Below are positions 9,342 to 16,311 of a stretch of DNA of 17,354 bases, piece by piece. Both the position numbers and the translations under genes were made by a program. The notes below the pieces were generated by a model. That model searched no databases, had not been told where the DNA came from, and worked only from the letters and a program-made list of their open reading frames with translations. Source of the DNA: an uncultured Clostridia bacterium (lineage in GTDB: Bacteria > Bacillota_A > Clostridia > Oscillospirales > Acutalibacteraceae). Where the stretch lies: positions 1 through 17,354 of the forward strand of contig CALWIE010000049.1 of assembly GCA_944380625.1 (NCBI GenBank). Reading direction: 5' to 3'. How positions within the stretch are numbered: the first letter of the stretch is position 1; every line of letters starts with the position of its first letter.

Positions 9342-9932
9342 ATGAAACAGGACGCCTTTTCCGCCGGCGTGGAACCCGGCGGCCTCTGGCACAAAAACGA
9401 CATCCGCATCCTGCTGTGCTACATTCTGGCCAGCGTCGGCGCGCCCCTCTCCCGAGGGGATTTGACCCGGATGATCCAGGAAAAGGGCCTGGCCAACTAC
9501 TTCGAGGTGGAGGACGCCCTGGCCGCCCTGGCAAAGCAGGGGAACATCCTCCTCCAGGAGGACGGCGCCTGCGCCGTCACCGAAACGGGCAGGGAGATCG
9601 CCCGCAGCCTGGACACCACCCTGCCCCTCTCCGTGCGGGACAAGGCCCTGGAGGCCGCCGTATCCCTGCTGGCCCAGGCCCGCGCCCAACGGGAAAACCA
9701 GGTGGAGCTCCAGGAGACCGACCGGGGCTGGCAGGTGAAGTGCCACATCTCCGGCGGGGACATGGAGCTCATGTCCATCACCTTGTACGTGCCCGACCGG
9801 GCCCAGGCGGAGTGCGTCCGGGACCGTTTCCACCGGGACCCAGAAGGGGTCTACCGGCTGCTGCTGGCCGCCCTCACCGGGGACCGGGCCCTGTCCCGGG
9901 AGCTCTTTGAAGAGCAGGAATCCCGCCTGTGA
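9342..9932 (+). CDS. DUF4364 family protein (winged-helix-like)
   Basis: A 196-residue protein of the DUF4364 family, widespread in Clostridia and of unknown function. The N-terminal part (WHKNDIRILLCYILASVGAP, then a short helix and GLANYFEVEDALAALAKQGN) looks like a winged helix-turn-helix of the kind found in small transcription regulators. It is followed by TETGREIARSLDTTLPLSVRDKALEAA and a C-terminal alpha/beta region. ATG 9342 has GGGAGG 9 nt upstream. It shares a transcript with the dockerin protein, whose start is 22 bp beyond its stop. A regulatory role is inference from the fold-like N-terminus only. Confidence 0.85.
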   Translation: MKQDAFSAGVEPGGLWHKNDIRILLCYILASVGAPLSRGDLTRMIQEKGLANYFEVEDALAALAKQGNILLQEDGACAVTETGREIARSLDTTLPLSVRDKALEAAVSLLAQARAQRENQVELQETDRGWQVKCHISGGDMELMSITLYVPDRAQAECVRDRFHRDPEGVYRLLLAALTGDRALSRELFEEQESRL

Positions 9933-9954
9933 CCCAGTGGAAAGGAGGATGACC

Positions 9955-11451
9955 ATGGCCCCGAAAGCCGCGCCCCTGTGGAGGAGATTTTCCCGGCCGC
10001 TGCTCGCCCTTTTGGCCGCTGCGGCCCTGGTGTGCATGCTGGCGTTTTTGGGGGAGGGCGCTCCCCAGGCGTCCCAGGTCTGCCCCGCAGAGGGGGAGGT
10101 CCTCCTGCTGGGGGAGTGGGACGGCGCCTGCTGCCTTGTGACTGCCGCCGGGGACGGCGCCGGCCTCTACACCCTAAACAGCTCCACCGGGGAGGTTTTG
10201 GAGAAAGCCTCCCTCTCCCATCCTGTACTGTGGGCGGCCCTGCGGGGCGGCTCCCTCTACACCTTGGAAAACCAGGCGGGGACGCTGCGCCTGTCCCGCC
10301 GGGGCGCTTCCCTGGAAATATCCGACAGCTGGCCCTTGCCCATCGCCCCGGAGGAGATCTCCCTCTCCGGCTGCGACGGCACGGGCGTTTTTTATTTCAC
10401 CTCCCCGGAGGACCCCGCCTCCCTGCGGGCGGTGGACCCCCACGGGGCCCAGGCCCGTAAGGCGGACTTTCCCGGGCCGGGGGCCATCCAGTTCCTGGCC
10501 ACCACCCCGGGGGACAGGCTGTACCTGTTCGCAGGGGGCAGCCTCCACTTTGCGGACGCCCCCCAGCTGAGCTCCTGGAGCGCCGGGGCCTCCCTGCTGC
10601 CGCCCACGGCCCTTCTGGGAGAGGACGCCTTCCTGGACGCCTTCGGCCGGGTCTGCCGGTGGGAGGGCGGGGCCTTTGTCCAAAAGGGCACGGCCCCCGC
10701 AGACCCCCTCCTGTCCGCCCTGGACGGGGAAGGGCGCCTGCTCACCGCCTCCGGCAGCCAGGTGACCTGGTCCACCCTGGAAGGGGAGACCCTGGGCAGC
10801 GCCCGGGTCCAAGGGGAGGTGCGGGCCCTCTGCGGCGGGGGCGTCCTCTCCCAGGAGGGCGGCCAGTACCTGTTCACCCCCGGGGGCGGGGGCCAGGGCT
10901 CCACACCCACGCCTACGCCTTCGCCTTCTCCTTCTCCCTCGCCCTCGCCCTCTCCCTCTCCTTCTCCCTCGCCCTCTCCCTCTCCTTCCACCTCTCCTTC
11001 TCCCACGCCCAGCGCCTCTCCCCCGCCGGCGGGGAGCCCCTCGCCCTCCCCCAGCGCCACCCCTTCCGCCTCGCCTGGTCCCTCCACCCCGGAGGGGATC
11101 GCCCCAGAGGGGGAGTGGCTGCTGGCCCCGGCGGGGACCACAGTGGAAGACCTGGCCGCCTGGTATGCCCCGGACACCATCCTGGTCCGGGACCTGGAAG
11201 GCCAGCCGGTGAGCTCCGGGGCCCTGGCCACCGGCATGTCCGCCAGCACAGCCGGGGAGGAGTTCCTCCTGGTGGTGCCCGGGGACTGTGACGGCAACGG
11301 CGCCGTAAACCGCCAGGACCTGAAGGAGGCCCAAGCCCTGCTTTTGGAGGGGGACGGCCTCTCCACCCCCTACCGCCGGGCCGCCGACCTGGACGGGGAC
11401 GGGGCCCTCACCACCCAGGACCTGGCGCTGCTCTCCCAGAAGCTTTCCTAA
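9955..11451 (+). CDS. Membrane-anchored beta-rich protein with Ser-Pro stalk and C-terminal type I dockerin
   Basis: A 498-residue extracytoplasmic protein in four parts. Residues 1-34 carry basic residues followed by a hydrophobic stretch (LLALLAAAALVCMLAFLG), a signal anchor or uncleaved signal. Residues about 40-310 contain repeated short strands separated by Gly/Asp turns (LYTLNSSTGE, LYTLENQAGT, LYLFAGGSLH, LLTASGSQVTW), suggesting a beta-propeller, though no named repeat is clear. Residues about 316-380 form a low-complexity stalk with 11 consecutive Ser-Pro pairs. A small domain (TTVEDLAAWY to EEFLLVVPG) leads into a dockerin with two calcium loops, DCDGNGAVNRQD and DLDGDGALTTQD, having acidic or Asn residues at positions 1, 3, 5 and 12. 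Start ATG 9955 follows AAAGGAGG by 6 nt; an ATG abutting that site is less suitable. No cohesin protein is in the window. Confidence 0.85.
   Translation: MAPKAAPLWRRFSRPLLALLAAAALVCMLAFLGEGAPQASQVCPAEGEVLLLGEWDGACCLVTAAGDGAGLYTLNSSTGEVLEKASLSHPVLWAALRGGSLYTLENQAGTLRLSRRGASLEISDSWPLPIAPEEISLSGCDGTGVFYFTSPEDPASLRAVDPHGAQARKADFPGPGAIQFLATTPGDRLYLFAGGSLHFADAPQLSSWSAGASLLPPTALLGEDAFLDAFGRVCRWEGGAFVQKGTAPADPLLSALDGEGRLLTASGSQVTWSTLEGETLGSARVQGEVRALCGGGVLSQEGGQYLFTPGGGGQGSTPTPTPSPSPSPSPSPSPSPSPSPSPSPSTSPSPTPSASPPPAGSPSPSPSATPSASPGPSTPEGIAPEGEWLLAPAGTTVEDLAAWYAPDTILVRDLEGQPVSSGALATGMSASTAGEEFLLVVPGDCDGNGAVNRQDLKEAQALLLEGDGLSTPYRRAADLDGDGALTTQDLALLSQKLS
10903..10995 (+). repeat. Hexanucleotide (Ser-Pro codon) repeat tract
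   Basis: A run of TCN-CCN and ACN-CCN codon pairs encodes the stalk of the dockerin protein. The plus strand is almost all pyrimidine, broken by the G of TCG and ACG codons. The unit is 6 bp, so slippage changes stalk length in steps of two residues and keeps the reading frame. Confidence 0.85.
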
Positions 11452-13782: not shown

Positions 13783-13858
13783 GACTCATTAGCTCAGTCG
13801 GTAGAGCACTTGACTTTTAATCAAGGTGTCCGGGGTTCGAATCCCCGATGGGTCACCA
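13783..13858 (+). tRNA. trnK: tRNA-Lys (anticodon UUU)
   Basis: A 76-nt cloverleaf with encoded CCA. The acceptor stem GACTCAT pairs with ATGGGTC (one G-U). The D arm is AGCTCAGTCGGTAGAGC, the anticodon stem CTTGA/TCAAG has loop CTTTTAA and anticodon TTT, and the T arm is CCGGGGTTCGAATCCCCG. The discriminator is A. A consensus promoter lies upstream and a strong terminator begins at the final A of CCA. Confidence 0.98.
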
Positions 13859-14181: not shown

Positions 14182-14937
14182 TCACTGCCCCTCCATCTCC
14201 ACCATCTGGGGCCAGTAGCGCTTGGGGCACAGGCTTTGGCGCAGCTGGGGGTTGCGGCGGCCCTCCACGGCGACGGTGCGGTAAAAGACCTTCCAAAGGT
14301 CCCGCCAGCGGGACTCTGCCTCGCTGGGGGGCGGCAGCTCCACCCCCTCCGCCTGGAAAAACTCCCCCCTCTCCCCCTTGGGGTGGACAAAGCCCATCCC
14401 GTGGGCCTCGTCGTAGATCACAAAGCTCTCCCCGGGGAGGCGGTCGCAGAAGTGGGGCGCCGCCAGGGGAAGCACCCGGTTCTCCGGGGCAATGCGGGCG
14501 GCCAAGAACTCCCCGCAGTCGGAAAAGCGCAAAAACTCCAGCACCCGGTGGGCCTCGTTTTCCAGGGAGAGCACCCCCTTGCGCAGGGGAGCCACCGCCG
14601 GGTGGGCATCCATGCGGGCGGCCCGGGCCCCGTACCGGTAGCCCAAAAGCAAAAACCGCAGCAACAGCATCTCCCGGTCCGGCAGGCAGGTGAGGAACCC
14701 CTCCCGCACCAGCCGGTGGGCCTCCGGGGAAATCTTCCGGGAGATGGAGCGCTCCACCCGCTGGGCCCAATCCACCCGGGTGGGCACCTCCCGCAGGCCG
14801 AAGAGGCTCTGCTGGGCCTCGTCTGCGGGGCGGATGGCCACCGGCAGCTCCTTTGCCAAAAAGCACTGAAACACACAGCACAAAAACCCTTGATAGGACC
14901 CGTCGTAGCGGTAGATCACATCTGTCCTGTGAGGCAT
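14182..14937 (-). CDS. DUF4130 / TIGR03915-type protein, partner of the DNA-repair-associated radical SAM protein
   Basis: A 251-residue protein of the DUF4130 family, described only as a probable DNA metabolism protein. It is nearly always encoded beside the radical SAM protein found here, and in many genomes is fused to a uracil-DNA-glycosylase-like domain. Characteristic parts are IYRYDGSYQGFLCCVFQCF at the N-terminus, the LLLRFLLLGYRYGARA helix near 95, LPLAAPHFCDRLPGESFVIYD in the middle, and LWKVFYRTVAVEGRRNPQLR and CPKRYW at the C-terminus. No glycosylase domain is attached, and none is in the window. ATG 14937 has AAAGGAGG 10 nt upstream, inside the 3' end of the radical SAM gene. The two frames overlap by 22 bp, implying translational coupling and a likely complex. 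The biochemical activity is unknown. Confidence 0.88.
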   Translation of the reverse strand: MPHRTDVIYRYDGSYQGFLCCVFQCFLAKELPVAIRPADEAQQSLFGLREVPTRVDWAQRVERSISRKISPEAHRLVREGFLTCLPDREMLLLRFLLLGYRYGARAARMDAHPAVAPLRKGVLSLENEAHRVLEFLRFSDCGEFLAARIAPENRVLPLAAPHFCDRLPGESFVIYDEAHGMGFVHPKGERGEFFQAEGVELPPPSEAESRWRDLWKVFYRTVAVEGRRNPQLRQSLCPKRYWPQMVEMEGQ

Positions 14938-16244
14938 TTTACCCGATCCTCCTTTGTAGGCGAAAACAGGGAGAGCTGCTCCGGGGCCTCCAGCCAGGGG
15001 GCCTCCCCCGCGCCGGGCAGCTGGGTCCGGTGGAAGGCCGCCCCCTCCCGCAGGGCGCCCGCCACCACCTGGGGGTCGTCCGTGGGCAGGGGGGAGAGGC
15101 TCTTGCCCCGGCAGGTGAGGAAAAACCGGGCCCGCTTGAGGGAGACCCCCAGCTTTTTCAGGGCCGCCCCGTCCAGGAGGGCGTACCGCCGGGCGGAGCG
15201 GATGGCCCTGGCGCTCTTCACCCCAATGCCCGGCACCCGCAGGAGCATCTCATAGGGGGCATGGTTCACCTCCACCGGGAACAGCTCCATGTGGCGCAGG
15301 GCCCAGTGGCACTTGGGGTCCAAGAGGGGGTCGAAATCGGGGGCCTCCTCGTCCAAGATCTCCTCGGCGGAAAAGCCGTAAAACCGCAGCAGCCAGTCCG
15401 CCTGGTAAAGCCGGTGCTCCCGCAGGAGGGGCGGGGGCGTGCCCAGGGCGGGCAGGTTCCGGTCGCTGACCACCGGCATGTAGGCGGAGAAAAACACCCG
15501 CTTGAGCCCATACTGCCGGTACAGTCCCTGGGCCAGCCGGAGGATCTGCCGGTCGCTTTCGGGGGTGGCCCCCACGATCATCTGGGTGGACTGGCCCGCG
15601 GGCACAAAGCGGGGGGCCTTCCGGTAGAGGGCCAATTCCCGGCCGTTCTGACGGATACCGTCCCGGATGAGCCCCATGGGGCCCAAGATCTTCGCCTTGC
15701 TCTTCTGGGGAGCCAAAAGCCCCAGGCTCTTCTGGCTGGGCAGCTCGATGTTCACGCTCATCCGGTCGGCGTAGAGCCCCAGCCGGTAGGTGAGCTCCGC
15801 CGAGGCCCCGGGGATGGCCTTCACGTGGACATAGCCCCCAAACTGGCACTCCTCCCGCAGCCTTCGCAACACAGCCAGCATCCTCTCGCAGGTGGCGTCG
15901 GGGCTTTGCACCACGGCGGAGCTGAGAAACAGCCCTTCAATGTAGTTGCGACGGTAGAATTCCATGGTCAGACGGCACAGCTCCTCCGGGGTAAAGGTGG
16001 CCCGGCGGCATTCCACCGAACGCCGGTTGACGCAGTAGGCGCAGTCATAGGCGCAGTCGTTGGAGAGGAGCACCTTCAAAAGGGAGATGCACCGGCCGTC
16101 GGCGGCGAAGCTGTGGCAGAGGCCGGCGGCCACGGCGTTGCCCAGCACCCCCGGCCTGCCCCGCCGGTCCGCCCCGGAGGAGGTACAGGCCACGTCGTAC
16201 TTGGCGGCGTCCGTGAGGATTTTCAGCTTCTCAAACAGATCCAC
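14916..16244 (-). CDS. Putative DNA modification/repair radical SAM protein (TIGR03916-type) with C-terminal sliding-clamp motif
   Basis: A 442-residue radical SAM enzyme. The cluster motif is CAYDCAYC (C64, C68, C71), which holds the [4Fe-4S] cluster that cleaves S-adenosylmethionine. It opens VDLFEKLKILTDAAKYDVACTSSG, typical of a family known only as a putative DNA modification/repair radical SAM protein. Residues about 335-352 (LLRVPGIGVKSARAIRSA) form a helix-hairpin-helix, a DNA-backbone-binding element. The tail contains QLSLF at 423-427, the consensus pentapeptide for binding the DnaN sliding clamp. The start is GTG 16244, with GGAAGGAAGGG 8 nt upstream. In-frame ATGs at 16280 and 16304 lack such a site, and 16304 lies upstream of the predicted transcription start. 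Two LexA-type boxes bracket the promoter. The reaction and substrate are unknown. Confidence 0.92.
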   Translation of the reverse strand: MDLFEKLKILTDAAKYDVACTSSGADRRGRPGVLGNAVAAGLCHSFAADGRCISLLKVLLSNDCAYDCAYCVNRRSVECRRATFTPEELCRLTMEFYRRNYIEGLFLSSAVVQSPDATCERMLAVLRRLREECQFGGYVHVKAIPGASAELTYRLGLYADRMSVNIELPSQKSLGLLAPQKSKAKILGPMGLIRDGIRQNGRELALYRKAPRFVPAGQSTQMIVGATPESDRQILRLAQGLYRQYGLKRVFFSAYMPVVSDRNLPALGTPPPLLREHRLYQADWLLRFYGFSAEEILDEEAPDFDPLLDPKCHWALRHMELFPVEVNHAPYEMLLRVPGIGVKSARAIRSARRYALLDGAALKKLGVSLKRARFFLTCRGKSLSPLPTDDPQVVAGALREGAAFHRTQLPGAGEAPWLEAPEQLSLFSPTKEDRVKCLTGQM

Positions 16245-16273
16245 CCGGCAATCCCTTCCTTCCTCGCTTTTCT

Positions 16274-16287
16274 CGAACATGCGTTTG
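16274..16287. promoter_or_regulatory. LexA (SOS) box, promoter-distal copy
   Basis: CGAAC-ATGC-GTTTG has one mismatch to CGAAC-N4-GTTCG, the Gram-positive LexA/DinR operator, and fits the RNRY rule of its centre. It covers the predicted transcription start (about 16286), a repressing position. Confidence 0.75.
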
Positions 16288-16292
16288 CAGTT

Positions 16293-16298
16293 ATTATA
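16293..16298 (-). promoter_or_regulatory. -10 element of the radical SAM-DUF4130 operon
   Basis: A perfect TATAAT on the minus strand, 48 bp before the GTG start. The -35 region has no good match at 16-18 bp. The hexamer sits exactly between two LexA-type boxes and shares one base with the upstream one. Confidence 0.7.
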
Positions 16299-16311
16299 GA
16301 ACATTCGTTCG
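16298..16311. promoter_or_regulatory. LexA (SOS) box, promoter-proximal copy
   Basis: AGAAC-ATTC-GTTCG (on the minus strand CGAAC-GAAT-GTTCT) has one mismatch to CGAAC-N4-GTTCG. It occupies the spacer between -35 and -10. Its centre is 24 bp from that of the other box. Confidence 0.75.

What the first reader, a model, noticed from the sequence alone, without database searches (positions are those of the whole stretch)
16274..16311. Two LexA-type SOS boxes bracket the -10 of the uncharacterised radical SAM-DUF4130 operon
Seen: CGAAC-ATGC-GTTTG and AGAAC-ATTC-GTTCG, each one mismatch from CGAAC-N4-GTTCG, flank a perfect TATAAT on the minus strand. One box covers the predicted transcription start, the other the promoter spacer. 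Known: this is the Gram-positive LexA operator, and double sites at promoters are typical of tightly repressed SOS genes. Inference: this gene pair, annotated only as putative DNA modification/repair, is induced by DNA damage here. That gives direct regulatory support for a repair role otherwise argued from fusions to uracil-DNA-glycosylase-like domains.
Basis: partly seen in the sequence, partly recalled or inferred. Interest (0 to 1): 0.88.

Follow-up and report, generated by a model that had tools for sequence, protein, structure and literature searches.

The report
DNA-damage switch on repair gene pair
Two binding sites for the DNA-damage repressor LexA sit on the promoter of an uncharacterised repair-like gene pair in a bacterium, and many relatives keep such a damage switch even where LexA itself seems to have been replaced, which marks the pair as part of the emergency DNA-repair response.

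Summary
The two boxes are real: the only matches to CGAACN4GTTCG with at most one mismatch in the window, 24 bp apart, flanking a TATAAT upstream of the TIGR03916 radical-SAM/DUF4130 pair.

With a matrix trained only on lexA promoters, 62 of 79 relatives carry a LexA box upstream of this gene, against 5 of 418 control upstream regions. Over three genome sets the box follows canonical LexA: 94 of 101 with LexA, 6 of 46 without. Eleven of 11 alphaproteobacterial plasmid copies fetched carry GAAC-N7-GAAC; one betaproteobacterial copy carries CTGT-N8-ACAG.

LexA control of this operon is not new: it was predicted in Clostridium acetobutylicum (PMC3828012) and, for an apparently orthologous UDG operon, in Bacteroidetes (PMC8565304).

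The newer result lies outside the window. In a Gemmiger/Ruthenibacterium-type clade without canonical LexA the operon is headed by an HTH_3-S24 repressor gene preceded by ACAAC-N5-GTTGT (7 of 10, then 10 of 10 further genomes, three of these near-copies of earlier ones). The same palindrome precedes recA in 8 of 16 such genomes and 0 of 37 with LexA. I read this as a non-canonical SOS repressor. In 12 of 40 LexA-less, boxless genomes I found no switch. Binding and induction are untested.

The parts
16298..16311 (-). LexA box A (minus strand CGAACGAATGTTCT), overlapping by one base the upstream end of the -10
   Evidence: matrix score 19.2
16274..16287 (-). LexA box B (minus strand CAAACGCATGTTCG), over the expected transcription start
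   Evidence: matrix score 16.4
16293..16298 (-). -10 element TATAAT (no recognisable -35)
   Evidence: one search found no two-hexamer promoter
16253..16265 (-). ribosome-binding site GAGGAAGGAAGGG, 8 nt before GTG (read by eye)
   Evidence: sequence
14916..16244 (-). [quoted passage not shown] CxxxCxxC (CAYDCAYC) and a C-terminal helix-hairpin-helix-like stretch (both read by eye)
   Evidence: 640.7 bits, cut-off 343.5
14182..14937 (-). TIGR03915 / DUF4130 putative DNA repair protein, overlapping the end of the radical SAM gene
   Evidence: 209.9 bits TIGR03915; 145.2 bits PF13566
16337..16370 (-). terminator-like hairpin between the upstream rubrerythrin-like gene (named by eye) and the boxes, so the pair most likely has its own promoter

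Best explanation
The pair is a LexA-repressed SOS operon. LexA dimers on the two boxes cover the -10 and the start of transcription; when RecA filaments trigger LexA self-cleavage, the pair is expressed. Shown: the boxes, their place, their conservation and their dependence on canonical LexA across genomes. Inferred: binding, repression and induction in this organism, and a DNA-repair role. In many lineages without canonical LexA the operon stands behind another S24-type repressor gene, which suggests that the damage switch itself is what is kept.
For: The two best LexA-matrix hits of the window flank the -10. 62 of 79 orthologue upstream regions pass a score reached by 5 of 418 control regions. 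Box present in 57/61 LexA+ vs 5/18 LexA- genomes (set 1), 23/23 vs 1/15 (set 2), 14/17 vs 0/13 (set 3); total 94/101 vs 6/46. Lineage-specific operators upstream of plasmid-borne copies: 11/11 alphaproteobacterial GAACN7GAAC, 1/1 betaproteobacterial CTGTN8ACAG. Printed predictions for C. acetobutylicum CAC3343-CAC3344 and Bacteroidetes.
Against: The window's own genome is not held, so its LexA is unseen; its sister in the tree, L002, lacks canonical LexA and the box, and 11 of 11 further members of L002's family have no box, although 2 of these 11 have a LexA hit over the cut-off. Seven LexA+ genomes of 101 lack a box. The counts are not corrected for kinship. No -35 was found. No binding or expression data. 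Gemmatirosa (L178) has no perfect match to the four operators tried. The C. difficile paper has no 'radical SAM' or 'uracil' in its main text.
Confidence: 0.9

Rival explanations
1. The boxes are sites of an S24/XRE repressor of a phage or other non-LexA regulator that happens to share GAACN4GTTC-like half-sites.
For: The window's sister in the tree (L002) has an S24 gene in the operon and no canonical LexA; S24 repressors lead this operon in several lineages.
Against: The matrix comes from lexA promoters and fits both sites. The S24-headed operons of the Gemmiger type have no such boxes: 0 of 9 in set 1 and 0 of 10 in set 2. No S24-like gene precedes the pair in the window (read by eye).
Confidence: 0.06
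2. Chance: two palindromic matches in an intergenic stretch with no regulator.
For: Pattern counts at two mismatches do not exceed chance; 8 of 200 shuffles hold two matches at one mismatch somewhere.
Against: Both fall in one promoter 24 bp apart, and the same site type recurs in relatives.
Confidence: 0.02
3. The pair is in the SOS regulon but is not a repair system; for example it modifies DNA or counters mobile elements that are induced by damage.
For: Nothing that I read establishes an enzymatic activity; the C. difficile work reports LexA sites at non-repair genes too (PMC4234289, passages).
Against: The next gene is annotated as a UdgX-family uracil-DNA binding protein in 10 of 10 annotated proteobacterial loci fetched; a Y-family polymerase gene stands in front of the pair in L002 (Pfam) and, by eye, in L311 and L314.
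Confidence: 0.25

Closest known systems
CAC3343-CAC3344 of Clostridium acetobutylicum (PMC3828012, passages read)
   Different: One species; the paper says that no orthologue was listed as LexA-controlled in RegPrecise; in the passages read no test of LexA dependence across genomes
COG1573-COG4277 UDG operon in Bacteroidetes under non-canonical LexA (PMC8565304, passages read)
   Same: Predicted SOS control of what I take to be the same radical SAM family (COG4277 = TIGR03916 is recalled, not tested) by S24 repressors with phage-type HTH
   Different: Other phylum; [quoted passage not shown] not described as heading this operon in the passages read
Gram-positive LexA operator GAAC-N4-GTTC (B. 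subtilis; stated in PMC4234289)
   Same: Core, spacing and promoter position of both boxes
   Different: Each box departs from CGAACN4GTTCG at one position
HdiR, UmuDAb and Bacteroidetes S24 regulators (named in PMC8565304 passages)
   Same: Non-LexA S24 proteins that control SOS genes; compare the S24 heads found here in relatives
   Different: Those of the Gemmiger-type clade head the radical SAM-DUF4130 operon and share a palindrome with recA

Membership tests
LexA (SOS) regulon, Gram-positive type | Operator matching GAACN4GTTC in the promoter | tested here: met
LexA (SOS) regulon, Gram-positive type | Operator conserved at orthologues in genomes with LexA | tested here: met
   94 of 101 vs 6 of 46 without LexA; but 0 of 2 LexA+ members of the nearest family, that of L002
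LexA (SOS) regulon, Gram-positive type | Cognate canonical LexA in the same genome | not testable with these tools
   window's genome not held
LexA (SOS) regulon, Gram-positive type | LexA binding and RecA-dependent induction by DNA damage | not testable with these tools
   needs bench work
TIGR03916 / TIGR03915 (DUF4130) pair | Family models over curated cut-off, adjacent and co-directional | tested here: met
   640.7 vs 343.5 bits; 209.9 vs 112.25 bits
Canonical LexA (TIGR00498), for the S24 protein heading the operon in relatives | Whole-length match over cut-off including the LexA N-terminal domain | tested here: not met
   two proteins scanned: 72.1 and 66.8 bits vs 110.95, C-terminal part only; HTH_3 plus Peptidase_S24. 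One such genome, G045, has a C-terminal-only hit of 115.3 bits at another place
S24 self-cleaving repressors (non-canonical LexA-like) | Scissile Ala-Gly, catalytic Ser and Lys | tested here: met
   A-G, GDSM and TLK invariant in 20 of 20 aligned
S24 self-cleaving repressors (non-canonical LexA-like) | Shared operator at its own gene and at core SOS genes | tested here: met
   ACAACN5GTTGT at own gene 7/10 and 10/10, at recA 8/16 vs 0/37; single cases at uvrB, a GyrB/ParE-type subunit, rmuC, a Y-family-polymerase-like gene. Half of the recA genes lack it
S24 self-cleaving repressors (non-canonical LexA-like) | Binding to that operator and RecA-triggered cleavage | not testable with these tools
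   needs bench work

The most novel reading that the evidence does not exclude
A clade of gut bacteria (Gemmiger and Ruthenibacterium-like, with Subdoligranulum and Faecalibacterium less firmly tied in) has replaced canonical LexA by an HTH_3-S24 repressor that heads the radical SAM-DUF4130 operon, recognises ACAAC-N5-GTTGT, and also controls recA in part of the clade and, in single genomes, uvrB, a topoisomerase subunit, rmuC and a Y-family polymerase. Elsewhere other S24 types were coupled to the same operon (next to it in L324, L327 and L322; S24-polymerase-radical SAM in L002 and, by coordinates, G200, G203 and G204). The pair would then be an SOS gene that is mostly kept under a damage switch whichever repressor supplies it.
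Probability: 0.75. Interest if true: 0.75.

Novelty: new member of a known kind. Interest (0 to 1): 0.6.

Why it matters
It places an uncharacterised, widely spread radical SAM/DUF4130 pair in the SOS response of Bacillota on comparative evidence that reaches beyond one species, and so says when to look for its activity: after DNA damage. The follow-up offers a testable candidate for the SOS repressor and its operator in gut commensals in which no canonical LexA was found, a gap like the one that PMC8565304 describes and closes for Bacteroidetes.

Tried and rejected
A close relative of the radical SAM protein in viral contigs: none (a search for close relatives only). Plain mismatch counts were too weak at two mismatches and were replaced by a matrix trained on another gene. 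A first pass over lexA and recA promoters read minus-strand loci in the wrong orientation; it was redone and those numbers are not used. The idea that double boxes are the rule was not borne out. Papers: ten searches. Only named Faecalibacterium; in their listings (12 of 28 and 6 of 6 papers shown, titles and starts of abstracts) no SOS repressor of that genus is announced. Gemmiger, Subdoligranulum and the palindrome were not searched for, so I cannot say that the substitute repressor is not in print. The Caulobacter paper cited by PMC8565304 was not opened; a Verrucomicrobia paper asked for by a recalled DOI is not held. Which genes stand behind the 5 of 418 control regions that pass the threshold was not looked up. 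The small proteins beside sites in L210, L216 and L217 were not identified.

Full report
WHAT IS THERE. On the minus strand, 5' to 3', the promoter reads GCGAACGAATGTTC-TATAAT-AACTG-CAAACGCATGTTCG, followed by GAGGAAGGAAGGG and GTG at 16244. The two palindromes are the only matches with at most one mismatch to CGAACN4GTTCG in the window (mean 0.38 in shuffles). The gene is a full TIGR03916 protein (640.7 bits) and overlaps a TIGR03915/DUF4130 gene (209.9 bits). A terminator-like hairpin separates it from the rubrerythrin-like gene upstream, and no promoter with a -35 was recognised.

With the simple pattern, 31 of 80 upstream regions have a site with at most one mismatch, against 12 of 2348 other 270-bp windows of the same loci (L045 has no upstream DNA and counts as a miss). 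I then built a matrix from 96 sites found in the promoters of 53 lexA loci (orientation as corrected) and set the threshold at the 99% level of 418 other upstream regions of the rSAM loci: 62 of 79 radical SAM upstream regions pass, 5 of 418 controls pass, and the window's boxes score 19.2 and 16.4.

DEPENDENCE ON LexA. Canonical LexA was scored with TIGR00498. A genome counts as LexA+ if a hit is over the cut-off, except G045, whose hit covers only the C-terminal part. Set 1 (79 loci): box in 57 of 61 LexA+ and 5 of 18 LexA-. Of those five, two (L029, L058) have a LexA fragment at a contig end, so incomplete assemblies may explain some. Set 2 (38 genomes new to me, out of 46 with TIGR03916 over its cut-off among 119 of the family of Gemmiger An194): 23 of 23 and 1 of 15. 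Set 3 (30 genomes: 11 of the family of L002 and the 19 best-scoring new ones of the family of L005; 200 bp upstream instead of 250): 14 of 17 and 0 of 13. Together 94 of 101 and 6 of 46, Fisher p = 2e-22, not corrected for kinship. LexA+ without box: L034, L041, L068, L076, G195, G202, and G409 (11.2, just under the threshold).

OTHER PHYLA. A tblastn search of plasmids found 158 records; I fetched 15 of the 40 listed. All 11 alphaproteobacterial copies among them have GAACN7GAAC without mismatch 17 to 43 bp before the start; the one betaproteobacterial copy (Cupriavidus) has CTGTATATCCATACAG at -27; Gemmatirosa has only a one-mismatch site; of the two Bacillota records L185 has a one-mismatch GAACN4GTTC site and L181 is S24-headed. 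In the 10 proteobacterial loci with annotation the next gene is a UdgX-family protein.

THE SUBSTITUTE SWITCH. In many genomes without canonical LexA an S24 repressor gene stands on the same strand just before the radical SAM gene, or one short gene further up (L040, L291, L304): 9 of the 80 first loci and 10 of 38 in set 2, all LexA-; also L181, whose genome was not checked for LexA. Its domains are HTH_3 and Peptidase_S24 (two scanned), with Ala-Gly, GDSM and TLK invariant in 20 of 20. A palindrome ACAACN5GTTGT stands within 160 bp upstream of this gene in 7 of the 10 loci in which I found it (absent in L040, L042, L051) and within 260 bp in 10 of 10 further ones. Three of these ten (L291, L292, L293) are near-copies of L040, L059 and L019, so they add less. 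In Gemmiger An194 (L040) the site lies about 1.7 kb upstream with a transposase gene in between. In the 300 bp before recA the exact palindrome occurs in 8 of 16 S24-headed genomes (4 of 9 in the discovery set, 4 of 7 later), in 2 of 6 other LexA- genomes and in 0 of 37 LexA+ genomes. It is missing at recA in the three Ruthenibacterium-type genomes G006, G019 and G045; Faecalibacterium (G053) has a one-mismatch site at recA, none within 160 bp of its S24 gene, and an exact one by a Y-family-polymerase-like gene, so its place here is less firm.

SITES IN WHOLE GENOMES. Gemmiger An194 has just two exact sites in 3.1 Mb: recA and this operon. Nine S24-headed genomes hold 30 sites (16 for the pattern read backwards): 10 at S24-radical SAM operons, 4 at recA, 16 elsewhere. 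Of these 16, all fetched, one each precedes uvrB (over the NCBIfam cut-off), a GyrB/ParE-type subunit and a Y-family polymerase (both under their cut-offs; cut pieces were scanned), rmuC (Pfam) and a second S24 gene; the other 11 precede no recognised SOS gene, two of these loci (L210, L214) having only weak S24-like or polymerase-like hits. Ten LexA+ genomes hold 12 sites (22 backwards), none with a recA, uvrB, polymerase, rmuC, topoisomerase or radical SAM hit within about 1.5 kb, two (L250, L256) with S24/XRE-like frames.

OTHER ARRANGEMENTS, AND THE GAPS. In two LexA- genomes the palindrome sits directly upstream of the radical SAM gene (L070 at -72, L297 at -80) and in a third (L296) at -646, towards a divergent S24 gene. 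Other S24 types stand next to the radical SAM gene in L324 and L327 (about 10-30 bp away) and in L322, whose genome G202 also has canonical LexA but no box. L002 has S24-polymerase-radical SAM-DUF4130; L311 and L314 show the polymerase frame (by eye), and G200, G203 and G204 an S24 hit about 1.3 kb upstream. Of the 40 LexA- genomes without a box, 25 have such an S24 head and 3 the palindrome; for 12 I found no switch (L057, L073, G089, G121, G192, G193, G194, G196, G197, G208, G317, G430). Conversely, two LexA+ loci (L074 with box, L076 without) have a weak S24 hit 2-4 kb upstream.

TREE. The 20 S24-headed radical SAM proteins of the Gemmiger type fall on one side of a branch with support 95, together with one LexA+ row (L302, box score 22.9), which would fit one origin and a later change back. 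The window pairs with L002 (support 97) on long branches (quick method, 118 rows). No species close to the window turned up (best identities about 70%), and L002's family has no boxes (0 of 11 besides L002). So the window's lineage keeps, or regained, LexA boxes that the nearest family seen lacks.

PRIOR WORK. [quoted passage not shown] PMC8565304 (passages) predicts SOS control of COG1573-COG4277 in Bacteroidetes and says that SOS regulation of a UDG-based repair system was reported in Verrucomicrobia and Alphaproteobacteria; that COG4277 is TIGR03916 is my recollection. PMC3765255 (passages) calls DUF4130 a predicted mutagenesis-related enzyme associated with SplB-like radical SAM and uracil DNA glycosylases. 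PMC7739468 (passages) lists a radical SAM protein in the Gram-positive SOS core without saying, in what I read, which. PMC4234289 and PMC8457756 (passages) hold no 'radical SAM' in their main texts.

VERDICT. The extra value lies in the cross-genome test and in the candidate non-canonical SOS repressor, both computational.

Noticed in passing
L040 581-595, 802-2010 and 2299-2913 (Gemmiger sp. An194): A transposase gene (IS110-like by eye) lies between the ACAACN5GTTGT site and the S24 gene that heads the operon; in the near relative L291 the site is at -109.
   Followed up: partly
L302 (G159): A radical SAM gene that falls inside the S24-headed clade of the tree but sits in a LexA+ genome with a strong LexA box (22.9), as if LexA control was regained.
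   Followed up: no
L324, L327, L322: S24 repressors of other subtypes next to the radical SAM gene; their operators were not worked out.
   Followed up: partly
L002, L311, L314: A Y-family polymerase gene directly before the radical SAM-DUF4130 genes, behind an S24 gene in L002; a common operator was not sought.
   Followed up: partly
L256 and L250: ACAACN5GTTGT sites in LexA+ genomes near S24/XRE-like reading frames, perhaps phage repressors with a similar operator.
   Followed up: no
window 9907-11451 (+): A protein with a long Ser/Thr/Pro repeat stretch and a dockerin-like C-terminal end (by eye).
   Followed up: no
window 13783-13858 (+): tRNA-Lys (TTT) gene between an alpha-galactosidase-like gene (by eye) and the DUF4130 gene.
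   Followed up: no
plasmids collection hits H3 and H20: Records of 3.97 and 2.63 Mb filed as plasmids look chromosome-sized.
   Followed up: no
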